Assembly (NCBI GenBank): GCA_019747685.1
Contig: JAIEQN010000147.1
Span: 1-34,796 of the forward strand
Origin: Gemmataceae bacterium
GTDB taxonomy: Bacteria > Planctomycetota > Planctomycetia > Gemmatales > Gemmataceae
DNA length: 34,796 nucleotides
Reading direction: 5' to 3'
Shown one piece after another: positions 15,982-30,513 of the stretch (the stretch's first letter is position 1; every line of letters begins with the position of its first letter). Both the position numbers and the translations under genes were made by a program. The notes under the pieces are model-generated. The model did no database searches. It was not told the origin of the DNA and was given only the letters and a program-made list of their open reading frames with translations.

Positions 15982-16021
15982 GGCTGACGAATCGGTTTGC
16001 AGGCTGACGAATCCGTTCGCG
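15982..16021. repeat. 20-bp tandem duplication upstream of the Rad52-like gene
   Basis: Two adjacent 20-bp units, 15982-16001 and 16002-16021, share GGCTGACGAATC and then diverge slightly (GGTTTGCA versus CGTTCGCG). They lie about 55 bp upstream of the predicted -35 box, so a pair of activator- or repressor-binding sites is possible. Confidence 0.7.
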
Positions 16022-16076
16022 GCCGAACAAATCTTGGCTTGACCGATTGCCGGCCGCCGCCACCCGCCTACCGAGG

Positions 16077-16106
16077 TTGTTTCCGGCCCTTCCACGGGTG
16101 TACACT
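16077..16106 (+). promoter_or_regulatory. Predicted sigma70-type promoter of the Rad52-like gene
   Basis: TTGTTT at 16077-16082, an 18-bp spacer and TACACT at 16101-16106 match a housekeeping promoter. Transcription would begin near 16113. That start makes the ATG at 16114 nearly leaderless, but gives the GTG at 16141 a normal 28-base leader containing AGAGAGG. Confidence 0.5.
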
Positions 16107-16140
16107 ACACCACATGACCGCCACACAGAGAGGTGTCACC

Positions 16141-16986
16141 GTGGTAGCCCCCGCATCCGACAAGCCGACCCCCCGCGACCCGGCCGTCCGGGCGATCACC
16201 CTCGCCCTGTCCGACCCGTTCGAGCCGCGGGAGATCAAGTTCAAGCCGCAGGCCGTCAAGAACAACCGGGCCCTGGCCATCGCCTACGTCGACGTCCGGC
16301 TCATCCAGGACCGGCTGGACGAGGTCCTCGGGGCCGAGAACTGGCAGGACGACTACGAGCTCCTCCAGGACGGGTCGGTCGTCTGCCGGCTCCGGCTCAA
16401 CCTCGGCGGCGACTGGGTCACGAAGACCGATGTCGGGTCGCCGAGCGAGCAGCCGGACGGCGGCGACCGGCTCAAGGCGGCGTTCAGCGACGCCCTGAAG
16501 CGGGCGGCCGTCAAATTCGGCATCGGCCGGTATCTCTACCGGCTTCCGGCCCAGTGGGTCGAGTACGACCCGGCCAAGAAGCAGATCGCCCAGGTGCCGC
16601 AACTGCCGGCCTTCGCCCTGCCCCGCCAGGCGACCCCGAGGCCGGCCAAGCCGGCTCCCCAGTCGCTCGCCACGGTCGCCGACGCTCCCGGCTCGCCGGC
16701 GGTCACGGACTCGAAGCCTCTGCCGGAGCCGAAGCCGACCGGGCTACCGACCGACGGCAAGGAGCTGCACCGCCGGCTTCGGGAATACGACGCCAAGCTG
16801 GCCGCCCAGAAGTTGATCCAGCCCGGGGCGCTGTTGGCCCACGTCACCCAGGCGGGGGTGAAGGCCGGGTACTCGGCCAACATGACCGAGTGGAGCGGCC
16901 CGGCCATCCCGTTCGCCGTCGACGCCGTCAAGGCGTTCGACCAGGCGGCCCGGGCGCCGAAGGCCGAGGCCCGACCGGCGGCGTAA
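16141..16986 (+). CDS. Rad52/Rad22-like single-strand annealing protein
   Basis: The 281-residue product resembles the Rad52/Rad22 family. The N-terminal half carries a pattern typical of the annealing core (YVDVRLIQDRLDEVLGAENWQDDYELL, then DGGDRLKAAFSDALKRAAVKFGIGRYLYRLP). These proteins bind single-stranded DNA as rings and anneal complementary strands in repair or phage-type recombination. The C-terminal half is Pro/Lys/Ala-rich, probably disordered, followed by a helical end. I prefer the GTG at 16141 because AGAGAGG lies seven bases upstream and a predicted promoter places transcription start at about 16113. An ATG at 16114 is the alternative and adds nine residues. No phage genes are adjacent, so it looks like a resident repair protein. 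Confidence 0.8.
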   Translation: MVAPASDKPTPRDPAVRAITLALSDPFEPREIKFKPQAVKNNRALAIAYVDVRLIQDRLDEVLGAENWQDDYELLQDGSVVCRLRLNLGGDWVTKTDVGSPSEQPDGGDRLKAAFSDALKRAAVKFGIGRYLYRLPAQWVEYDPAKKQIAQVPQLPAFALPRQATPRPAKPAPQSLATVADAPGSPAVTDSKPLPEPKPTGLPTDGKELHRRLREYDAKLAAQKLIQPGALLAHVTQAGVKAGYSANMTEWSGPAIPFAVDAVKAFDQAARAPKAEARPAA

Positions 16987-20323: not shown

Positions 20324-22915
20324 GTGACGCACTCCCGGCCGATCCCCCTCGACCCGCTCCTGGCCGTCTACCGGGCCGGTGATGTCCGCCCCGCCGCGAC
20401 GGTACTGGTGGCCGACTGGCTGCGGCCCGAGGTCCTCGACGCCGCCCCGGACGCGGGGCTGGCGGCCGCGGTCGCCCCGTTCTACTCGGCGGCGGTCCCG
20501 CTGGACCTCCACCCCGGGGCGGTCGGCGGCCGGGTCCGCTTCCTCCGCCACGCCCTCAACCACCTTGTTCACGGCCAGGACCCCCTGCCCGACCGGCTGG
20601 CCCGGTGCCTCGCCCCGGGCGAGGTCTACGCGGTCTGCGGCCTGGGGCGGACGTTCTGGGCGGCGGCCGTCAAGGCCCTCGACCCGGACCGGCACCCGCA
20701 CTGGTGCCCGGCGGCCGAGGCCGGGCTGGTCCGGCTCGGGCTGCTCGATCCCTCGCCGGCGGCGGTCGGGCCGCGGTTCGCGGCCGTCCTCCGGGGGTAC
20801 GACTCCGTCCGGGCCGCCGCCCCCGACCTGTCGGCGACCGCGGTCGACGACTTCCTCGCCCGGGTCGGGCGGATGACCGGCCGGGAACTGCCGGCCGACT
20901 CATTGACCGTCGGGACGGCCTGGGGGCCGGACGCCGACCGGGTCCGGGCCGCCCTGCGGGAGGTCCGGGTGCGGCGGCGGCTGCGGGGCCGGCTCCGGGA
21001 GGCGTCGGCCGAGACGATGGCCGCCCTGTCGTGGTTCCAGGCCGCGGCGGAGCGGGGAGACTGGGTCGCGGCGGGCGAGTCGTTGCGGGCCGCCTTCCCG
21101 GACGGCCGCTGGGAAGCGCTCCTGCCCCGCTTCGACGACGCCGACGACCCGGCGTTACCGTTCCCCGACCGGGCCAAGCTGTGGTGCGAGGTGGCCGCGG
21201 TGCTGCGGGACCGGTTCCGGGTCCACCCGCTCGAACTGGCCGATGTCGTGGCCGCGGCCGTCGAACCCGACGACCCGCCGGCGGGGCGCGAGGGCTTCGG
21301 CGGGTTCTGTGGCGACACCTTCCGGTTCCTCGGCGAGTTGGCCGACGCCAGCGGCAAGGGGTGGATGGCCGAGCGGCGGGGGCGGTATCAGTTCGTCCTG
21401 CGGGAGCCGCTGGTCGAGCTGTGCGAGGCACTGGCCGACCGGTACGTCCGGCCGGTGCTGGGCGGCGAGTACGGCTGGGACCTGGAGGCCGACGCCCGGC
21501 CCGGTCGGGCGCTGACGAGCATCTGCAAGAACGACTTCGGCCGGTCCGGGCCGTACCAGTCCGTTCAGTGGATCACCTTCTACCGCCGGCAGATGGCCAA
21601 CCGCCGGGCCGACGCCCAGTTCTTCGCCCGGGTCGCTCCCGATGGCGTGAAGTTCGGCGTCCACCTCGGGCGGTCGGCCCGGGAGGCCGGCAAGCAGTTC
21701 CGGCGGAACGTCCAGGACCACGCCGAGGCGTTGTTCGCGGCCCTGGCCGCCGGCCGGGCGTTCGTCGAGTGCCGGTTCTGGGCCGGCGACGACCTGAGCG
21801 AGGTGATCCGGGTCCGGACCCCGGCCGACCTGCGGGACTGGGCGGGGCACAAGACCGTGGCGGTCGGCCGGGAGCTGCCGCCGGCCGCCGACGTGCTCCG
21901 CCGCGACGAGCTGGTCGGCGAAGTCCTCCTGACCTTCGACCGGCTCGTGCCGGCGTTCGCCTGCGCGGCCGAGGCCGACCCGCTGCCCCTGCTCCGCCGC
22001 CGGGCCGGGTCGCCGGACGGCCGGCCGGCGTTCGACCGAGTTGCCTTCGGCCGCGAAACCTTCCTGTCGGACGTGTGGCTCGACCGGGTCTACGGCCTGC
22101 TCCGGCTCAAGAAGCAGCTCATCCTCCAGGGCGTCCCCGGTACGGGTAAGACCCACGTGGCCCGCTGCCTGGCCCGGCTGCTGACGGCCGACCGCCCGGA
22201 CGCCGTGCGGCTCGTGCAGTTCCACCCGGCCTACAGTTACGAAGAATTCGTGGAAGGGATTCGGGCGCGGAACGTCGAGATCGACGGCCGGTCGGGGGTG
22301 ACGTACCCGGTGGAGGACGGCGTCCTGTGCGCCTTCGCCGAGCAGGCGGCCCGCCGGCCGAGCGAAGCCCACGTCCTCCTGATCGACGAGATCAACCGGG
22401 GGAACCTGCCGCGGGTGTTCGGCGAACTGCTGTACCTGTTGGAGTACCGCGACCAGGCGGTGACGCTGCCGTACTCGAAGCGGGCGTTCCGGCTGCCGGA
22501 CAACCTCTTGGTGGTGGCGACCATGAACGCGGCCGACCGGTCGGCGGTGGCCCTGGACCAGGCCTTGAGGCGGCGGTTCTCGTTCGTCGAGATGCCGCCG
22601 GACGCGGCCCTCCTGGCCCACTGGCTGGAGCGGCACCCGCCGGCCGACGCCGACGAGGCGTTCGGTCCGCGGGTGGTGCGGGCGTTCGAGGAGCTGAACC
22701 GGCGGCTGGCCCGGGACCTCGGCCCGGACCGGCAGGTCGGGCACAGCTTCTTTATGGTGCCGGGGCTCGATGCCGGTAAACTCGGGGCGGTCTGGGACCA
22801 CCACGTCCGGCCGCTGTTGCTCGACGCGGTCGGCGGCCGGGCCGAGCGGCTGGCCGAGTACGAGTTCGCCCGGCTCCAGGACGGCCGGAAGCGGCGGGAC
22901 CGGCAGCGGGCCTGA
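20324..22915 (+). CDS. mcrB: McrB-like AAA+ NTPase of a restriction system
   Basis: The 863-residue product has an AAA+ motor in its C-terminal third: Walker A GVPGTGKTH near 603-611, Walker B VLLIDEINRGNLPRVFGELL near 684, and ATMNAADRS near 733. The last is the McrB-type variant of NTADRS, followed by LDQALRRRFSF. In McrBC, McrB recognises modified DNA through its N-terminal domain and uses GTP-driven translocation to activate the McrC nuclease. Here the N-terminal 540 residues are large; a module near 390-540 (TSICKNDFGRSGPYQSVQWITFYRRQMANRRADAQFF and following) may be the sensor but I cannot name it firmly. The GTG at 20324 has no clear ribosome site; it is chosen because it is the first start after the leader. 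Two membrane-protein genes separate it from mcrC. Confidence 0.8.
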   Translation: MTHSRPIPLDPLLAVYRAGDVRPAATVLVADWLRPEVLDAAPDAGLAAAVAPFYSAAVPLDLHPGAVGGRVRFLRHALNHLVHGQDPLPDRLARCLAPGEVYAVCGLGRTFWAAAVKALDPDRHPHWCPAAEAGLVRLGLLDPSPAAVGPRFAAVLRGYDSVRAAAPDLSATAVDDFLARVGRMTGRELPADSLTVGTAWGPDADRVRAALREVRVRRRLRGRLREASAETMAALSWFQAAAERGDWVAAGESLRAAFPDGRWEALLPRFDDADDPALPFPDRAKLWCEVAAVLRDRFRVHPLELADVVAAAVEPDDPPAGREGFGGFCGDTFRFLGELADASGKGWMAERRGRYQFVLREPLVELCEALADRYVRPVLGGEYGWDLEADARPGRALTSICKNDFGRSGPYQSVQWITFYRRQMANRRADAQFFARVAPDGVKFGVHLGRSAREAGKQFRRNVQDHAEALFAALAAGRAFVECRFWAGDDLSEVIRVRTPADLRDWAGHKTVAVGRELPPAADVLRRDELVGEVLLTFDRLVPAFACAAEADPLPLLRRRAGSPDGRPAFDRVAFGRETFLSDVWLDRVYGLLRLKKQLILQGVPGTGKTHVARCLARLLTADRPDAVRLVQFHPAYSYEEFVEGIRARNVEIDGRSGVTYPVEDGVLCAFAEQAARRPSEAHVLLIDEINRGNLPRVFGELLYLLEYRDQAVTLPYSKRAFRLPDNLLVVATMNAADRSAVALDQALRRRFSFVEMPPDAALLAHWLERHPPADADEAFGPRVVRAFEELNRRLARDLGPDRQVGHSFFMVPGLDAGKLGAVWDHHVRPLLLDAVGGRAERLAEYEFARLQDGRKRRDRQRA

Positions 22916-22928
22916 CGGGAGGACGCCC

Positions 22929-24413
22929 TTGCGCAGATGGCTGAAGCGGACGGCGGCCGGCGGGCTCCTGGTCGTCGCCGCCCTCGTCGCCGTCGGATTC
23001 ATCGCCCGGGCGGCCTTCCGCCGGGCCGGCGACCGGGAGGTGGCCGCCGTCACGGCCGCACTCGACGCCGAGGAGCCGGGCTGGCGGATCGACGCCATCC
23101 AGGCCGCCCGGGCCAAGGCCGCCCCGCCGGACGCCGACAACCCGATGGCCATCGTCCTGTCGCTCCACGGCCGGCTCCCGCCCGTCTGGGACGACCTCAT
23201 GAAGGCCCGGGACGGGGGCGGGGCGGTCGTCAACGCCCACCCCGTCTTCTCCGAGCTGCTTTGGCTGCTCCAGGGCCGGGCGGCGACGGGCGACCTCGCG
23301 GCGACGGCCCAGGACGAGCTGCTGCGGCCCGGGGTGCTGGCCCGGCCGAACGGCTACCACCCGGTCGAGATCGCCGACAACCCGTGGGACACTCTCCTGC
23401 CGCACGTGCAGAACTCCCGCGCCATCTTCGCCCTGCTCGACGCCGACGGCCGGCTGGCGGCGGTCGAAGGCGACCCCGACCGGGCCGTCCGGGACGCCCG
23501 GGCCGGCCTGGTCGCCGCCCGCGGCCCCGGCGACGAGCCGTTCATGATCTCCCAGCTCGTCCGGCTGGCCGGGGCCAACGTCGCCGTCCGGACGGCCCTG
23601 CAGGCCCTGGCCTGGGGGGAGCCGGCGGCCGGGCTGGCGGAGCTGCAGGCCGAGCTGCTGGCCGAGGCCGACCAGCCCGGGTTCCTGGTCGGCCTGCGGG
23701 GCGAGCGGGCGGTCATGGACCGGGTCTTCGACGGGCTGGACGCCGGCCGGATCGACTTGAGGAACATGGGCGGCGGCCGCGGTGAGTCGTCCACCTTCGA
23801 CGACCTGGCGTTCGCGGCTTACCGCGGGTTCCTGCCGGGCGACCGGGCGATGGGCCTGCGGACGTTGAACGCGGTCATCGAGGCGGCCAAGCTCCCGACC
23901 CACGAGCAGCGGGACGCCGTCGCCGCCGTCCCGCTCCCGCCGGGGCCGAAGGAGGACAGCTACCGGTACATCGTCTCACGGCTCATGCTGCCGGCCTACG
24001 AGAAGGTCCACGAGGCCCACCTGCGGACGATGGCCGACCTGCGTGCGGCGGCCGCGGCGATCGCCTGCGAGCGGTTCCGACAGAAGATCGGCCGCTGGCC
24101 GGAGTCGCTGGACGAACTCCCGAAGGACATTCTCCCGGCCGTGCCGGCCGACCCGTACACCGGCCGGCCGGTCTTGTTCCACCGGTTCGACGACGGGGTC
24201 GGGGTGTACGTCGTCCCGCCGGCCGACGCCCGCCCGCCGGCCTTCCGGCCGCCCGTCGAGTTCGAGGACCCGGACCCGCTGGAGGGCCGGGGCCGGGGGT
24301 GGCGGGTGTGGGACCCGGCGGCCCGCGGGACCACCCGCCCGGCACCCGACCGGGAGTTCATCCCCGAAGAACCGGCCGAGGACGGCCCGCCCCCCGCCCC
24401 GGAGGAGCCGTGA
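22929..24413 (+). CDS. Membrane-anchored protein A of the McrBC-like operon (tandem paralogue)
   Basis: The 494-residue product has one N-terminal transmembrane helix (about residues 9-27, TAAGGLLVVAALVAVGFIA) and a large, mostly helical exterior domain. Landmarks are LDAEEPGWRIDAIQAARAKA, DEPFMISQLVRLAG, LVGLRGERAVMDRVFDGL, and a C-terminal segment ERFRQKIGRWPESLDELPKDI with VPADPYTGRPVL, reminiscent of pseudopilin ends. I start it at TTG 22929 because GGGAGG lies six bases upstream and the helix follows; no ATG or GTG fits. It begins 13 bp after the McrB stop and ends in a 4-base overlap with its paralogue. Similar proteins are a multicopy hypothetical family in Gemmata-like genomes (from memory), so a specific restriction role is unproven. 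Confidence 0.75.
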   Translation: MRRWLKRTAAGGLLVVAALVAVGFIARAAFRRAGDREVAAVTAALDAEEPGWRIDAIQAARAKAAPPDADNPMAIVLSLHGRLPPVWDDLMKARDGGGAVVNAHPVFSELLWLLQGRAATGDLAATAQDELLRPGVLARPNGYHPVEIADNPWDTLLPHVQNSRAIFALLDADGRLAAVEGDPDRAVRDARAGLVAARGPGDEPFMISQLVRLAGANVAVRTALQALAWGEPAAGLAELQAELLAEADQPGFLVGLRGERAVMDRVFDGLDAGRIDLRNMGGGRGESSTFDDLAFAAYRGFLPGDRAMGLRTLNAVIEAAKLPTHEQRDAVAAVPLPPGPKEDSYRYIVSRLMLPAYEKVHEAHLRTMADLRAAAAAIACERFRQKIGRWPESLDELPKDILPAVPADPYTGRPVLFHRFDDGVGVYVVPPADARPPAFRPPVEFEDPDPLEGRGRGWRVWDPAARGTTRPAPDREFIPEEPAEDGPPPAPEEP

Positions 24414-25921
24414 GGAAGCCGCGGGGCAAGCTGAAGGGCTGCGGGGTCGCGGCACTCGTCGCCGTCGGGGGGCTGGCCCTGGTGGTGTTCGTCGGCCGGG
24501 CGTCGTTCCGCAAGGCCGGCGACCGGCAGCTCGCCGAGGTGACGACGAAGCTCGACGCCGACGACCCCGGCTGGCGGTTCGAGGCGATCGAGGCCGCCCG
24601 GGTCGAGGCCGCCCCGCCGGACGAGGTCAACGCCGCGCGGGTGGTCGTCTCCGTCCACGACCGGCTGCCCGGGGGGTGGGACCAGCCGCTCACGAACGAC
24701 TCCGGGGTCGGCGGCCCGGTCTGGAACACCCGCCCGGGGTTCTGGCAGTTCGTCGCCCTGGCCCAGGCGTTGGCCGCCGCCGGGGACGTGCCGGCCGCCG
24801 CCCGGGACGACCTGCTCCGACCGGATGTCCTTCGCCGGCCCGGCGGTTACATCCGGCTCACGTTCAAGGACAACCCGTTCACCATCCTCCTCCCCGAGGT
24901 GCAGAAGTTGCGGTCGGCGTACGCCCTGCTGGACGCCGACGCCGGGATGGCGGCCCTCGCGGGCGACCCGAACCGCGGCGTCCGGGACGCCCGGGCGCTC
25001 CTCGTGGCCGCCCGGGCGGTCGGCGACGAGCCGATCCTCATCTCCCAGCTCGTGCGGATGGCCGGGGCGAAGGCCGCCGGCCGGACGGCGGTGCAGGTAC
25101 TCGCCTGGGGCGAGCCGACCGACGGGCTGGCCGACCTCCAGGCCGAGCTGCTGGCCGAGGCCGCCCACCCGGGCTACCTGATCGGCCTCCGCGGCGAGCG
25201 GGCGCTGATGGACAAGTTCTTCGAGGGGCTGGCGGCCGGCAAGGTCGGGGTGAAGGACCTGAAGGACCTCCAGGTGCTCGGCACCCAGTACCCGCCCCCG
25301 GACGCGGTGCTGGGGGCCGGGTTCCTGCTCTACCAGGGGTTCCTGCCGGGCGACCGGGCCGAGTGCCTCCGGCTGTTCGGCGACCACATCGCGGCGGCCC
25401 GGCTCCCGCCCCACGAGCAGGCGGCGGCCATCGCGGCGGTCCCCCTCCCGCCCCGGCCACCCGAGAGCTACCGCTACCTCGTCACCAGCCACCTGCTGCC
25501 GTTCGTCGGGAAGGCCCACGCCGGCTACCTGCGGACCCGGACCGACCTGCGGACGGCGGCCGTGGCGATCGCCTGCGAGCGGTTCCGGCGAAAGACGGGT
25601 CGGTGGCCGGAGTCGCTGGCCGGACTCCCTAAGGACATCCTGCCCGAGCTGCCGGCCGACCCGGTGACCGGCGGCCCGCTCGGGTACTCGCGGACCGCCG
25701 ACGGGGTGGCCGTCTTCGGCACCTACACCGAAGAGGAGAGGCCGAAGACGGGCCACCCGAGGGCAGACGACCCGCTGGGCGGGCTCGGCCGGGGCTGGCG
25801 GCTGTGGGACCCGAAGTTCCGCGGGGTAATGGCCTCCCTGCCGAAGTCGATGGCCGAACTCCTCCGGGAGGAGCAACCCGGCGTGCCCCCAGACCCCCCG
25901 GGCAAGGACGACGAGCCGTGA
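24410..25921 (+). CDS. Membrane-anchored protein B of the McrBC-like operon (tandem paralogue)
   Basis: The 503-residue product is a clear paralogue of the preceding protein: N-terminal helix (VAALVAVGGLALVVFVGRA), then LDADDPGWRFEAIEAARVEAA, LLRPDVLRRPGGYIRL, GDEPILISQLVRMAG, LIGLRGERALMDKFFEGL and the ending ERFRRKTGRWPESLAGLPKDI with LPADPVTGGPLGY. No catalytic motif is visible. The start is GTG 24410, overlapping the upstream TGA by 4 bases, with GGAGGAG just upstream. Its own stop overlaps the mcrC GTG in the same way, so translational coupling along the operon is expected. Most of the protein should lie outside the cytoplasm or be anchored facing inward; topology is not resolved. Divergence from its twin argues against a recent duplication. 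Confidence 0.75.
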   Translation: MRKPRGKLKGCGVAALVAVGGLALVVFVGRASFRKAGDRQLAEVTTKLDADDPGWRFEAIEAARVEAAPPDEVNAARVVVSVHDRLPGGWDQPLTNDSGVGGPVWNTRPGFWQFVALAQALAAAGDVPAAARDDLLRPDVLRRPGGYIRLTFKDNPFTILLPEVQKLRSAYALLDADAGMAALAGDPNRGVRDARALLVAARAVGDEPILISQLVRMAGAKAAGRTAVQVLAWGEPTDGLADLQAELLAEAAHPGYLIGLRGERALMDKFFEGLAAGKVGVKDLKDLQVLGTQYPPPDAVLGAGFLLYQGFLPGDRAECLRLFGDHIAAARLPPHEQAAAIAAVPLPPRPPESYRYLVTSHLLPFVGKAHAGYLRTRTDLRTAAVAIACERFRRKTGRWPESLAGLPKDILPELPADPVTGGPLGYSRTADGVAVFGTYTEEERPKTGHPRADDPLGGLGRGWRLWDPKFRGVMASLPKSMAELLREEQPGVPPDPPGKDDEP

Positions 25922-27093
25922 CCCGGCGAACGGTCCGGCTGGTCGAGCGGCGGACCCGCGCGGTCCGGCTGCCGCGGGCGGAGGCCGACTTCCTGGTCGG
26001 CCCCGGCCGCACCCTCGTCGACCTCGTTCCCCTCCCCTCGCTCACGCTCGGGGCTCGCCAGTACCGGCTCACCCCGCGAGGCTTCGTCGGCGTCCTCGAC
26101 GGCCCGACCGTCCGGTACGACATCGGCTCGAAACTCCCCTGGGCCAACTTGCTCATGCTCCTCGGGCTGGCCGACCGGCCGTTCGGGGGAGGCGAGCCCG
26201 CCGCCGGGCTGCTCGACCTCCTCGCCCGGGAACTGGCGGACCGGATGCGGGAGGTGGCCCGGGCCGGGCTGGTCGGCGGGTACGGGGAGGCCGACCGGGC
26301 GTCGCCGTTCCTCCGCGGCCGGCTCCGGGCGGCCGACCAGCTCCGGGACACCGCCGCCCGGGCCTTCCCGGACCGGTTCCACGTCACCGAGGACGTGTAC
26401 GACCTCGACACCCCCTGGAACCGGGTCCCGAAGCGGGTCGCCCTCGACCTGCTCCGCCGCCCCGACCTGTCGCCCGCGGCCCGCGACGGTCTGACGGCGG
26501 CCCTCGTCCCGTTCGCCGACGTGCCCGACGGCCCGGCCACCGACGCGGAGTTCGACGCCGCCGGGCGTGAGCCGCGGGCCGCCGCGTACAATGGGTTGCT
26601 CACCTTGTGCCGGCTGCTCCGCGACGGGCTTTCGGCCGCCGACCCGACTTCGTCGGCCGGGGGCGGGTTCCTGATCGACCTCGGCCGGGCGTTCGAGCGG
26701 CACCTGGCCGCGACCGCCCGGGCCGCCGTCGGGGGCCGGCCGGGGTGGGCGGTCGAGGACCAGCCGCGGTTCGTGGCCGGGTCGGTCGAGTTCGTCCCGG
26801 ATGTCCTGGTCCGCCGGCGGGGCGACGCCCGGCTGGTCCTGGACGCCAAATGGAAGCGGGTCGGCCCCGACCCGGCGGACTTGCACCAGGTGCTGGCTTA
26901 CGCGGCCGTCACCGGGGCGGCCCACGTCGCCCTGGTTTACCCCGGCCGTAAGCCGGGCTGGCGGTCGCTGGCCGTCGGCCGGGTGACGGTGACGCTCGCC
27001 CGGCTGCCGGCGGTCGGCTCGGTGTCCGACTGCCAGGACGGCGGCCGCCGGCTCCTCGCCGCGGTCCTGCGGCACCGGCCCTGCGGCCGGTAG
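25918..27093 (+). CDS. mcrC: McrC-like restriction endonuclease subunit
   Basis: The 391-residue product matches the McrC family. The N-terminal half has the beta-rich FVGVLDGPTVRYDIGSKLPWANLLMLLGLA block; the C-terminal half is a PD-(D/E)xK nuclease fold. Its catalytic residues read P-D295 then D309-A-K311 (FVPDVLVRR, LVLDAKWKRV), followed by DLHQVLAYA, so the core is intact with Asp in the second acidic position. McrC cuts DNA when driven by McrB. The start is GTG 25918, which overlaps the stop of the previous gene by 4 bases; an upstream in-frame extension to 25804 runs through the paralogue gene and is rejected. This is the last gene of the tight operon that starts at 20324. Confidence 0.85.
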   Translation: MTRRTVRLVERRTRAVRLPRAEADFLVGPGRTLVDLVPLPSLTLGARQYRLTPRGFVGVLDGPTVRYDIGSKLPWANLLMLLGLADRPFGGGEPAAGLLDLLARELADRMREVARAGLVGGYGEADRASPFLRGRLRAADQLRDTAARAFPDRFHVTEDVYDLDTPWNRVPKRVALDLLRRPDLSPAARDGLTAALVPFADVPDGPATDAEFDAAGREPRAAAYNGLLTLCRLLRDGLSAADPTSSAGGGFLIDLGRAFERHLAATARAAVGGRPGWAVEDQPRFVAGSVEFVPDVLVRRRGDARLVLDAKWKRVGPDPADLHQVLAYAAVTGAAHVALVYPGRKPGWRSLAVGRVTVTLARLPAVGSVSDCQDGGRRLLAAVLRHRPCGR

Positions 27094-27296: not shown

Positions 27297-27932
27297 ATGA
27301 ATGTCGGGGCCGACTCGGCGCTGAACGCGAGCGTGCTGGTCCTGAACAAGACGTTCATGGCCGTGCATGTGATCTCCGTCCGCCGGGCGTTCTGCCTGCT
27401 CTGCAAGGAACTGGCCGAGGTGGTCAGTCTGGAGGACGGGGCGTTCGCCACCTACGACTTCCGGACCTGGGCCGACCTGAGCGAGTTCCGGGCGCGGAAC
27501 TTCCGGAAGGAAGACGACGACTGGGTGCGGACGCCGACCAGCGAGCTGCAGGCCCCGCGGGTGATCCGGCTGCTAGGGTACGACAAGATGCCCAAGCAGA
27601 CGGTGAAGTTCAACCGCCGGAACATCTTCGCCCGGGACCACAACCAGTGCCAGTACTGCGGTAAGCGGTTCCCGACGGCGGAATTGAGCCTGGACCACGT
27701 CGTCCCGCGGAGCCAGGGCGGGGCGACGACCTGGGAGAACATCGTCTGCGCCTGCGTCGACTGCAACGTCCGCAAGGGCGGGCGGACCCCCCGGCAGGCC
27801 CACATGACGCTGATCCGCAAGCCGGAGAAGCCGAAGCGGAGCCCGATGCTGAACCTCAAGTTGACCCAGAAGAAGTACCAGTCGTGGCAGTCGTTCATCG
27901 ACGCCGCGTACTGGTCGGTCGAGCTGAAGTAA
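27297..27932 (+). CDS. HNH endonuclease-family protein
   Basis: The 211-residue product has an N-terminal domain (ASVLVLNKTFMAVHVISVRRAFCLL) that usually precedes the HNH core in a broadly conserved bacterial family. The HNH core has zinc Cys C118/C121 and C153/C156, D133-H134 in LSLDHVVPRS, N148 in WENIV and the closing CNVRKGGRTP. All residues of an active beta-beta-alpha-metal nuclease are present. The C-terminus is basic. Family members are often housekeeping single genes of unknown biological role, so association with the McrBC-like operon 200 bp upstream is only by position. The ATG at 27297 is preceded by GAAAGG about 10 bases upstream. A palindromic terminator follows the stop codon. 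Confidence 0.88.
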   Translation: MNVGADSALNASVLVLNKTFMAVHVISVRRAFCLLCKELAEVVSLEDGAFATYDFRTWADLSEFRARNFRKEDDDWVRTPTSELQAPRVIRLLGYDKMPKQTVKFNRRNIFARDHNQCQYCGKRFPTAELSLDHVVPRSQGGATTWENIVCACVDCNVRKGGRTPRQAHMTLIRKPEKPKRSPMLNLKLTQKKYQSWQSFIDAAYWSVELK

Positions 27933-27981: not shown

Positions 27982-30096
27982 TCACATCCGGTCGAGCGAG
28001 TCGAGCCAGTTCAGCAGCACCTCGAACGCCTCCGCGTCCAGGTACTCCTTGCCCGCGTCCTTGACCTCCCGGTAGACGACCGGGAACCGGCGTTCGGCCA
28101 GGGCGTCCTTGCTCGCCTTCACCTCGTTCAAGAGCGGGTCCTTGTCGCCGGCGGCGACGAAGAAGGCCAGCGGCTGGTTGGCCACGTTCTCCTTCGGGGC
28201 GGTGCCCAGAGCCGACCCGACCGCGGCCACCCCGCGGAACAGGTCGCGGGCCTGGAACCCGAGGTAGAAGGCCATCTGCCCGCCGTTTCCCATCCCGTGG
28301 GCCACCACCCGGGCCGGGTCGATCGTATACCGGCCGAGGACCTTCCGCACGTCCTGCACCACAAGCTCCGTCTCGCTGGCCGCCCAGCCCTCGGGGTTAG
28401 CGGACTTCGGCCCCATCAGGATGTAGTGGTGGGTCTCGCAGAACTCCTTGAGCGCGGCCGCCATCCGCTCGCCGTCCTTGCCGCCCTGCCCGACCGGGTG
28501 GAACCAGACGATCAGCCCGTGCGACACGTTCGGGTCGTAGCTGTCCGGGACGTAGAGCCAGTGTTCCCGCCCGAGGGCCTCGTCGGTCCGCTTGATGTAG
28601 CCCGTCTCTTCTTTCTCGGTTTTCTTCTCCGGCTCCGGCTCCTTGCCGCCCTTCGGGAATAGCCCGCCCTTCTCCTTCGGCCGGCCTTCGAGCGCCTTCC
28701 CGGCCGACGACGGCATCGGCAGCTTGGCCGGCACGGCGTCGGGCACCGTGGTGAGCTTGGCCGTCAGCGTCTCGGTCTTGTCGCCCTCCTTCCGCTTCAC
28801 CTCGACCGTCACCTCGGACCCCGGCGGGAATTGGCTGAGCGCCGTGGCCAGTTCGGTCCGGTTGCGGACCGGGGCCAGGGTCTTGCCGGTGCCGACCTTC
28901 ATCACCCGGTCGCCCTCCTTGAGGCCCGCGGCCGCGGCCGGGCTGTCCGGGTAGACGAACCGGACCGGCACGCCCGGGGCCGGGTCATCGCGGAGCGGGA
29001 GCACCCCGAAGAACGGGTTGACGTAGGCGGTCTGCGTGCCCTGCAGCTCGATCTTGGCGAACTCCACCTCCTTGCCGTCGCGGAGGACCTGAACGGTGAC
29101 CGCGTCGCCCTCGTACTTCGGCCCGAGGGCGTGCTGGACCGACGAGAAGTTCGGGGTCGGCTTGCCGTCGATCGAGACGATGGTGTCGCCGACCTTGATG
29201 CCGGCCCGGGCGGCGGCCGAGTCCGGCCCGACCGCACCGATGACCGGCTTGGCCGTGTAGGCGTCGGCGTCCTTCGGGTTGATGCCCAGGAGGCCGCGGC
29301 GGAGGTCCTTCCCCCCCTTCAGGGCCGATAGCTTGGCTAGCACATCCTCAAGGGGGATGGCGAAGCCGATGCCGCTATCGTACCACTCGAACCCGGCCGT
29401 CTCCCCCTCCGACCGGACCGACGCCGGGACCAGGACGCCCAGCACCCGGCCGTCGATGGCCACCAGCGGCCCGCCGTAGTTGGCCGGCGACACCTTGGCG
29501 TCGGTCTGGAGGGCCTTCCCCAGGAGCCGGCCGGTGGCACTCACGATCCCTGCGCTGATCGAAGGGAGGTGGCCCACGTCCGGGTCGAGCGTCCGGCCCA
29601 AGGATAGCGCCCACTGCCCGACCCGCACCTCCTTCTTCGGGTAGGCCGCCGGGACCTGTAGCTCTTTGGCTTCCACTTTGAGCAGCGTGAGCATCCGGGT
29701 CTGGTCGGTGGCGACGACCTTGGCCACCAGCCGATTCGGTCGGCCGGGGACGGTGACGAAGATGTCGGTCGGCTTGTTGGCGAAGTTGAACGACGAGGTG
29801 ATGACGTACCCGTCCGGGTCGACGACGAGTCCGGTGGTCGGGCCGGTGCCGCGGGCCACCCCGGGGCCGCCCCCGCCGCCGGGCGGACCCCCCTTCTTGG
29901 CCGTGCCGACCACCTCCAGCCCGCCGGCCGTCTCGATCTTGACCACCGCCGGGGCGGCCGTCGCCGCAGCCGCCCGCATGGCCTCTTCGTTGGCCTCGTT
30001 CACGTCAAGCCGGTCTTGCCCGGACACGGGGGCGGTCAGGCACAACCCGAGACCGGCGGCGAGGATCGGGAATAGAAGGCGCATCGGCGGCAGCAT
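27982..30096 (-). CDS. Pseudo-protease/pseudo-hydrolase fusion: trypsin-like, PDZ, PDZ, alpha/beta-hydrolase
   Basis: The 704-residue product has a signal peptide (MRLLFPILAAGLGLCLTAPVSG), a Do-like trypsin domain (about 40-265), two PDZ domains (about 270-480), a Lys/Glu-rich linker and an esterase-like alpha/beta-hydrolase domain (about 520-704). The trypsin triad is lost: F103 sits where His is expected (VITSSFNFA), M135 where Asp is, and Y207 where Ser is (SPANYGGP versus NPGNSGGP). The hydrolase elbow reads HGMGNGG with G603 in place of the nucleophile Ser, and no catalytic His follows near the end. It probably acts as an exported binding or scaffold protein. The ATG at 30096 has a GGAGG-type site six bases upstream; ATG 30084 is the alternative. 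Confidence 0.85.
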   Translation of the reverse strand: MLPPMRLLFPILAAGLGLCLTAPVSGQDRLDVNEANEEAMRAAAATAAPAVVKIETAGGLEVVGTAKKGGPPGGGGGPGVARGTGPTTGLVVDPDGYVITSSFNFANKPTDIFVTVPGRPNRLVAKVVATDQTRMLTLLKVEAKELQVPAAYPKKEVRVGQWALSLGRTLDPDVGHLPSISAGIVSATGRLLGKALQTDAKVSPANYGGPLVAIDGRVLGVLVPASVRSEGETAGFEWYDSGIGFAIPLEDVLAKLSALKGGKDLRRGLLGINPKDADAYTAKPVIGAVGPDSAAARAGIKVGDTIVSIDGKPTPNFSSVQHALGPKYEGDAVTVQVLRDGKEVEFAKIELQGTQTAYVNPFFGVLPLRDDPAPGVPVRFVYPDSPAAAAGLKEGDRVMKVGTGKTLAPVRNRTELATALSQFPPGSEVTVEVKRKEGDKTETLTAKLTTVPDAVPAKLPMPSSAGKALEGRPKEKGGLFPKGGKEPEPEKKTEKEETGYIKRTDEALGREHWLYVPDSYDPNVSHGLIVWFHPVGQGGKDGERMAAALKEFCETHHYILMGPKSANPEGWAASETELVVQDVRKVLGRYTIDPARVVAHGMGNGGQMAFYLGFQARDLFRGVAAVGSALGTAPKENVANQPLAFFVAAGDKDPLLNEVKASKDALAERRFPVVYREVKDAGKEYLDAEAFEVLLNWLDSLDRM

Positions 30097-30171
30097 AACC
30101 CCCCTCCCCCCCCTCTTTTTTCGCGGCTCGAACCCGTCGGACGGAACCCGTTGATCGGCAACGACCTCGGA

Positions 30172-30299
30172 CCGAAAAATCGAGGCCCCGAGCACGACCG
30201 GGCGGTCATGCTCGCTCAGTTTTTCGGCCGCAACTCGCACGATCACCATGACTTCCGCCTCCGAGTGAGCATTGCCGTATCCGGTCATGCTCCGCTCAG
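30172..30299. repeat. Tandem hairpin-forming repeat in the leader of the trypsin/hydrolase fusion gene
   Basis: CGGTCATGCTCGCTCAG at 30203-30219 recurs as CGGTCATGCTCCGCTCAG at 30282-30299. The first copy forms a 10-bp hairpin with GAGCACGACC at 30190-30199, enclosed by CCGAAAAA (30172-30179) pairing with TTTTTCGG (30220-30227). The region is more AT-rich than its surroundings and non-coding by codon use. It would lie in the minus-strand leader upstream of 30096. Confidence 0.55.
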
Positions 30300-30413
30300 C
30301 CTCGCCGTGCGGCTCGAATCGCCGAGTCGCCAATAGTGAACAGATTACCACATAACCGCTGAGGAGGCGAGGTCCGTTGCCGGCCGGTCTTCCGCGGACC
30401 CGATCGAACCGGG

Positions 30414-30513
30414 CCCGGGGTTCCACCCCGGGCTACGCTGTGGCAGCCCTTCAGGCTGCCCGGCTCTTGACCCCGAAGGGGTCGCACACCGTAGCCCGGG
30501 GTGGAACCCCGGG
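30414..30513. repeat. 100-bp nested inverted-repeat element (GTAGCCCGGGGTGGAACC arms)
   Basis: Perfect 23-bp arms at 30414-30436 and 30491-30513 enclose two smaller hairpins: GCAGCC/GGCTGC at 30443-30459 and GACCCC-GAA-GGGGTC at 30469-30483. The whole can fold into a four-way, cruciform-like structure. It lies 20 bp past the stop of the trypsin-like gene at 30534 and may also act as its terminator. The composition from several palindromes looks like REP-type elements joined or nested. Confidence 0.85.

What the first reader, a model, noticed from the sequence alone, without database searches (positions are those of the whole stretch)
20324..27093. McrBC-type operon with two membrane-anchored proteins between mcrB and mcrC
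Seen: four genes packed as GTG/TTG/GTG/GTG starts with 13 bp, then 4-nt overlap, then 4-nt overlap. The first has McrB-type AAA+ motifs and the last a McrC nuclease core (P-D295, D309-A-K311). Known: McrB and McrC are normally adjacent and act together on modified DNA. The two middle proteins have no known link to restriction. Inference: a four-component, possibly membrane-tethered defence system in which DNA recognition or activation is coupled to the envelope.
Basis: partly seen in the sequence, partly recalled or inferred. Interest (0 to 1): 0.72.

Follow-up and report, generated by a model that had tools for sequence, protein, structure and literature searches.

The report
McrBC locus with embedded membrane proteins
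In soil and water bacteria of the family Gemmataceae, a McrBC-type DNA-cutting pair (a restriction-like enzyme) usually has one to four membrane-anchored proteins encoded between its two genes; it has stayed at one chromosomal place for a whole genus and carries a new kind of front end, but the membrane proteins look like add-ons rather than parts of the cutting machine.

Summary
In detail: B, X1, X2 and C lie as described, with a 13-bp gap and two 4-nt overlaps. B has all McrB motifs (NxxD type) and C an invariant PD..DxK core. B-X(1-4)-C order is conserved in Gemmataceae (20 of 25 contiguous B..C loci), and X is under purifying selection about as strong as C's. But X is a planctomycete-wide family found mostly away from mcrBC, five B..C loci lack it, and the locus is no defence island: it is a fixed, syntenic site, present in 19 of 19 genomes of one genus. 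X has one N-terminal transmembrane helix (charge pattern N-in), a helical domain without a clear PDB match, and a C-terminal domain homologous to GspG pseudopilins (hhalign 96%). So nearly all of X should lie outside the cytoplasm and cannot directly hold B or C. New here: B's N-terminal 560 residues, an architecture found only in Gemmataceae, model as a DNA-glycosylase-like (HhH-GPD) domain (structural lead only) plus a DUF2461 domain. Most likely a vertically inherited McrBC variant with a new reader and accessory envelope genes. Whether X works with B and C or merely travels in the operon is not settled. New variant of a known kind.

The parts
20324..22915 (+). McrB-like protein (863 aa, GTG): residues ~5-196 HhH-GPD-glycosylase-like fold (lead), ~324-553 DUF2461/DUF1054 fold, ~590-820 AAA+ GTPase with NxxD signature (MNAADRS)
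20324..20911 (+). codons for residues 1-196 of B: predicted HhH-GPD-like domain; hairpin-like G106-L-G108 ... R137-L-G-L; glycosylase Lys and Asp positions not conserved (T/G and C)
   Evidence: structure: (3knt_C Z 7.7, 3n0u_C Z 6.9, MutY/EndoIII Z 4-5); sequence tests not significant:
21293..21982 (+). codons for residues 324-553 of B: DUF2461 domain, DUF1054/YktB-like fold
   Evidence: E 6e-11; 2a8e Z 18.2, 3mqz Z 16.1
22929..24413 (+). X1 (494 aa, TTG): one N-terminal signal-anchor helix, helical domain, GspG-like C-terminal domain
24410..25921 (+). X2 (503 aa, GTG): paralogue of X1, overlaps X1 and C by 4 nt each; AF2 model pLDDT 93, pTM 0.90
25918..27093 (+). McrC-like nuclease (391 aa, GTG), PF10117, PD295..D309AK311 core intact
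27297..27932 (+). HNH protein (211 aa), near-universal single-copy family core gene that marks the chromosomal site; not counted as part of the system

Best explanation
B-X1-X2-C is a lineage-specific McrBC-type system kept by vertical descent at one chromosomal site in Gemmataceae. Inferred mechanism: B forms the McrB-type GTP-driven AAA+ ring; its N-terminal glycosylase-like plus DUF2461 module reads DNA (probably an altered base, bound without excision); C docks on the ring, triggers GTP hydrolysis through the NxxD signature, and cuts DNA with its PD-DxK site. X1 and X2 are envelope proteins encoded in the same operon: one helix in the inner membrane, and a helical domain with a pseudopilin-like head outside the cytoplasm. 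They are accessory: they can be lost, duplicated or left behind without B and C losing their motifs, and by topology they cannot be built into the B-C machine. Shown here: gene order, intact motifs, conservation, topology signal, GspG homology, purifying selection. Inferred: DNA reading, cutting, and what X does.
For: Intact B and C motifs in all aligned relatives. B and C depend on each other: the two genomes with B but no detectable C (Limnoglobus, G068) have lost the NxxD signature. Conserved order and locus. One McrC in 19 of 19 genomes of genus g7, against patchy strong type I MTase hits, about 11 of 19. N-terminal fold matches. X topology and X-GspG homology, 96.4%, E 1.1e-9, with controls under 5%. 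dN/dS of X 0.16-0.22 against C 0.14-0.22 in three close pairs. Linked X cluster on the tree, 6 changes against 20 shuffled. No B or C at 41 orphan X loci.
Against: No biochemistry or phage test. The glycosylase-like assignment rests on a predicted model with Z under 8 for a helical domain, and the sequence tests did not support it. Fixed vertical inheritance is unusual for a defence system. The strong coupling of X to C could mean a closer functional tie than 'accessory'.
Confidence: 0.55

Rival explanations
1. X genes are passengers: members of an expanded planctomycete envelope family that landed between B and C in an ancestor and are retained because the operon is inherited intact; they have their own envelope function unrelated to B and C.
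For: X is planctomycete-wide (130 of 392 genomes) and mostly unlinked to B or C, beside varied housekeeping genes; five contiguous B-C loci lack X; other envelope-type genes sit in the same gap elsewhere (haem-motif secreted protein in L108, lipoprotein-like in L097); X copy number varies 0-4.
Against: X remained with C in G088 and with B in G004 when B and C parted; X genes from at least two X lineages occur in these operons (one clade rejected); 4-nt X-C coupling is common; X is as constrained as C.
Confidence: 0.35
2. The system is a housekeeping DNA-surveillance nuclease (altered or damaged host or incoming DNA) rather than an anti-phage system.
For: One copy in 19 of 19 genomes of genus g7, including ~4.8 Mb genomes; fixed synteny across genera with no defence genes around; glycosylase-like N-terminal fold; a Rad52-family gene lies in the syntenic block.
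Against: Absent or partly lost in about half of the family, with B decaying when C is lost; PF10117 proteins are otherwise known as type IV restriction components; the Rad52 neighbour may be incidental.
Confidence: 0.35
3. One reading: a four-component complex in which X tethers B and C to the membrane and couples DNA recognition to the envelope.
For: Conserved B-X(n)-C order, tight X-C coupling, one transmembrane helix in nearly all X.
Against: Predicted N-in/C-out topology in 69 of 78 X and GspG homology of the C-terminal domain put the folded part outside; the N-terminal tail before the hydrophobic core is short (median 19 residues); B-C loci without X keep all motifs.
Confidence: 0.1

Closest known systems
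McrBC type IV restriction system (E. coli K-12 McrB/McrC; PF10117; NxxD branch of Bell et al. 2024, PMC11090510)
   Same: McrB-type AAA+ GTPase with Walker A, DE-N and MNxxDRS; McrC-family partner with PD-DxK; same operon
   Different: N-terminal module is glycosylase-like + DUF2461 instead of the DUF3578 domain of the E. coli protein; 1-4 membrane-protein genes lie between B and C; vertically fixed locus outside defence islands
[quoted passage not shown]
   Same: A McrBC-type system linked to membrane and pilus-assembly themes
   Different: Those have NxD GTPases fused to FtsB-like coiled coils and signal-peptidase-type partners; this one has NxxD and no fused coiled coil, and the pilin-type homology is in separate X proteins
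Type II secretion pseudopilin GspG (T2SSG, PF08334)
   Same: C-terminal domain of X is homologous; extracytoplasmic location expected
   Different: X has a K/R-rich N-terminal tail and anchor without a recognised prepilin site, a ~300-residue helical domain in between, and no secretion genes beside it
HhH-GPD DNA glycosylases (Ogg of Methanocaldococcus and Thermotoga, MutY, EndoIII)
   Same: Predicted fold of B residues 5-196; a G-x-G hairpin and R-L-G-L at matching spacing by eye
   Different: Catalytic Lys and Asp positions not conserved; no significant sequence similarity found
Brig1/Brig3 anti-phage DNA glycosylases (PMC13160076)
   Same: Base-reading DNA glycosylase folds used in defence
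   Different: Uracil-DNA-glycosylase superfamily enzymes that excise bases; not fused to McrB

Membership tests
McrBC family (type IV restriction) | McrB-type AAA+ GTPase with NxxD signature | tested here: met
   TMNAADRS, GVPGTGKT, LIDEINRG; invariant in 23 relatives
McrBC family (type IV restriction) | McrC partner with PF10117 domain and PD-(D/E)xK core | tested here: met
   (E 7.6e-28); P294 D295 D309 K311 invariant in 27
McrBC family (type IV restriction) | Modification-dependent, GTP-dependent DNA cleavage | not testable with these tools
   needs purified proteins
McrBC family (type IV restriction) | B and C encoded adjacently | tested here: inconclusive
   5 contiguous loci adjacent, 20 with X between, several genomes with B and C far apart
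CoCoNuT / CoCoPALM | NxD (shortened) GTPase signature | tested here: not met
   NxxD in all (definition)
CoCoNuT / CoCoPALM | Long coiled coils fused to McrB or McrC | tested here: not met
   AF2 model of B 1-560 is globular; C is 391 aa, mostly covered by PF10117
GspG-type pseudopilin (for X) | Homologous C-terminal domain | tested here: met
   hhalign 96.4%, E 1.1e-9, 79 columns; controls under 5%
GspG-type pseudopilin (for X) | N-terminal prepilin signal directly followed by the domain | tested here: not met
   K/R tail, anchor, then ~300-residue helical domain; no N_methyl hit at E 0.1
HhH-GPD glycosylase fold (B 1-200) | Structural similarity to the superfamily | tested here: inconclusive
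   about 26 of 31 N-terminal rows are HhH-GPD enzymes but best Z is 7.7
HhH-GPD glycosylase fold (B 1-200) | Significant sequence or profile similarity | tested here: not met
HhH-GPD glycosylase fold (B 1-200) | Catalytic Lys/Asp | tested here: not met
   T/G and C at the matching positions by spacing (alignments); depends on the fold assignment
Mobile defence-island system | Patchy presence, defence neighbours | tested here: not met
   syntenic housekeeping neighbours, 19 of 19 genomes in one genus

The most novel reading that the evidence does not exclude
An envelope-coupled McrBC: X proteins carry pseudopilin-like heads outside the cytoplasm, at the place where DNA or phage enters, and act with a cytosolic McrBC whose new glycosylase-like reader recognises altered bases; X expression is translationally tied to McrC so that surveillance at entry and cutting are produced together.
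Probability: 0.18. Interest if true: 0.78.

Novelty: new variant of a known kind. Interest (0 to 1): 0.52.

Why it matters
McrBC systems are usually seen as patchy defence genes. Here one is a fixed part of a genus's genome, with a front end not found fused outside the Gemmataceae and membrane proteins of an undescribed, pseudopilin-related family recurrently embedded in its operon. If X matters, it would link DNA restriction to the envelope in planctomycetes.

Tried and rejected
Own-genome paralogue expansion as a trivial explanation of X: only one weak further copy in this genome, so rejected. HNH as a fifth component: it is a near-universal single-copy core gene also present where B and C are absent, so it marks the site. 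Remnants of X in X-less B-C gaps: no convincing similarity. Intervening genes in L108 and L097 as divergent X: L108 is not; L097 reads as a lipoprotein-like protein. X fold in PDB: no Foldseek match with E under 0.6; VIA rows are mostly designed or armadillo-like helical proteins, so no family named from them. HhH-GPD by sequence: not supported, kept as a structural lead only. Literature on Gemmata McrBC, on DUF2461 in McrB, and on McrB with HhH-GPD: nothing relevant in the held library; this covers open-licence papers only. Monophyly of all mcrBC-linked X: rejected.

Full report
Observation. The four genes lie as described: B 20324-22915, X1 22929-24413, X2 24410-25921, C 25918-27093, with a 13-bp gap and two 4-nt overlaps. 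X1 and X2 match no family in Pfam, NCBIfam or PADLOC and are 55% identical to each other. Walker A, DE-NRG and MNxxDRS are invariant in 23 B relatives; P294-D295, D309 and K311 are invariant in 27 C relatives.

Is the order conserved? In 95 genomes of the same family, X occurs in 64, McrC in 37 and B in 41. The loci were fetched and mapped. Of 25 loci with B and C contiguous on one contig, 20 have 1-4 X genes between them and 5 have none (L081, L093, L094, L099, L151). Contig breaks explain several apparent splits (G048, G038, G020, G021). Real separations: in G088, a single-contig genome, B lies about 10 kb from X-C in opposite orientation, consistent with an inversion between B and X; in G075, also a single contig, B and C are 2.3 Mb apart; in G094, G044 and G076 they lie inside different contigs; G004 has B-X on one contig and C at the end of another. 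Counts are by my own gene mapping and include MAGs.

Where is it? The block Rad52-family gene, MFS, phosphoesterase, B, X(n), C, HNH, trypsin-PDZ gene, w30501 is shared between genera g1 and g7, and its right half with g21. The HNH gene is single-copy in nearly all genomes (64 of 66 good ones have it), so it marks the site. Window neighbours are housekeeping genes. PF10117 occurs exactly once in 19 of 19 genomes of genus g7, while strong type I methyltransferase hits (above about 80 bits) occur in about 11 of the 19 (my count). So this is a fixed, vertically inherited locus, not a mobile island. The B N-terminal architecture was found only in Gemmataceae: 26 loci in a pattern scan of 84,980 species genomes, and in 392 phylum genomes outside the family only the DUF2461 part matched, mostly in proteins of DUF2461 size. 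The scan is limited in sensitivity.

B and C as a pair. Two genomes with B but no detectable C, Limnoglobus roseus (L142) and G068 (L148), keep the P-loop but have lost MNxxDRS and DE-NRG. According to PMC11090510 this signature couples GTP hydrolysis to McrC, so the decay fits loss of the partner.

X. It is planctomycete-wide (130 of 392 genomes at E 1e-10). At 41 orphan loci neither B nor C is found by profile search; sampled neighbours are varied. Linked X cluster on the tree (6 changes against 20 in shuffles), but one clade is rejected, so at least two X lineages sit in these operons; sampling of orphans was selective. X is under purifying selection similar to C: dN/dS 0.16 against 0.14, 0.19 against 0.165, 0.22 against 0.22 in three close pairs; B is lower. 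For the window's own pair (G091) values are higher, 0.48-0.56 for X against 0.39 for C. The simple Nei-Gojobori method in high-GC DNA makes absolute values rough.

X topology and fold. Of 78 X, 69 carry more positive charge before than after the helix (mean +4.0 against +0.5), which by the positive-inside rule puts the domain outside. The AF2 model of X2 is confident (pLDDT 93, pTM 0.90) and has no clear PDB relative. Its C-terminal 355-470 is homologous to GspG pseudopilins (hhalign 96.4%, E 1.1e-9; five control segments and an unrelated target below 5%), although the GspG set was only four sequences. GspG domains are extracytoplasmic, which agrees with the charge pattern.

B front end. The AF2 model of residues 1-560 (pLDDT 89.5, pTM 0.83) gives a DUF1054/YktB-like fold at 324-553 (Z 18.2 and 16.1) and, at 5-196, mostly HhH-GPD DNA glycosylases: archaeal and Thermotoga Ogg (Z 6.7-7.7), MutY and EndoIII (Z 4-5). 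The Z values are below the level that is safe for helical domains, but about 26 of 31 rows for this region are from one superfamily. By eye, G106-L-G ... R137-L-G-L has the spacing of the EndoIII hairpin and following helix, with the Lys and Asp positions not conserved. Profile-profile and PSSM tests were not significant. It is a lead.

Mechanism and rivals. The best reading is a McrBC-type GTP-driven nuclease with a new DNA-reading module, plus accessory envelope proteins produced from the same operon. Passenger X genes and a housekeeping DNA-surveillance role remain serious rivals. A membrane tether is disfavoured by topology. No activity was measured. The confidences given to the rivals are not exclusive of each other: the housekeeping reading concerns what B and C do, the passenger reading what X does.

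Known systems. It belongs to the McrBC family by B and C motifs. It is not a CoCoNuT or CoCoPALM (NxxD, no fused coiled coils; definitions in PMC11090510), though CoCoPALM is a precedent for a link between McrBC and pilus-assembly proteins. That paper's main text does not mention planctomycetes or DUF2461; its supplements were not read. Novelty: new variant of a known kind.

Noticed in passing
window 15997-16986: Rad52/Rad22-family gene (PF04098, E 3.8e-13) in the syntenic block upstream of mcrB, conserved across two genera.
   Followed up: partly
window 27982-30426: Trypsin-like protease with two PDZ stretches and a long C-terminal part that reads like an alpha/beta hydrolase; conserved downstream of the HNH gene.
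   Followed up: no
L142 9109-11505 (Limnoglobus roseus): B-like gene directly upstream of HNH with C and X absent and the GTPase signature lost; B may have been kept for another role.
   Followed up: partly
L141 / L084 (G088): B and X-C are split about 10 kb apart in opposite orientation, as by an inversion with a breakpoint between B and X.
   Followed up: yes
L108 5092-6345; L097 6376-7011: Other envelope-type genes in the B..C gap of distant loci: a secreted protein with CxxCH-like motifs and a lipoprotein-like protein.
   Followed up: partly
L125 6671-13753: Tandem array of five X-family genes with no mcrBC nearby.
   Followed up: partly
L072 10710-11620: About 0.9 kb between two X genes with no X similarity; possibly a decayed or spurious reading frame.
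   Followed up: partly
L124 8374-9303: Weak match to the MADS defence component mad2 (E 6e-10) beside an orphan X gene; one further orphan-X neighbour matched mad3 (E 2e-54, locus not identified).
   Followed up: no
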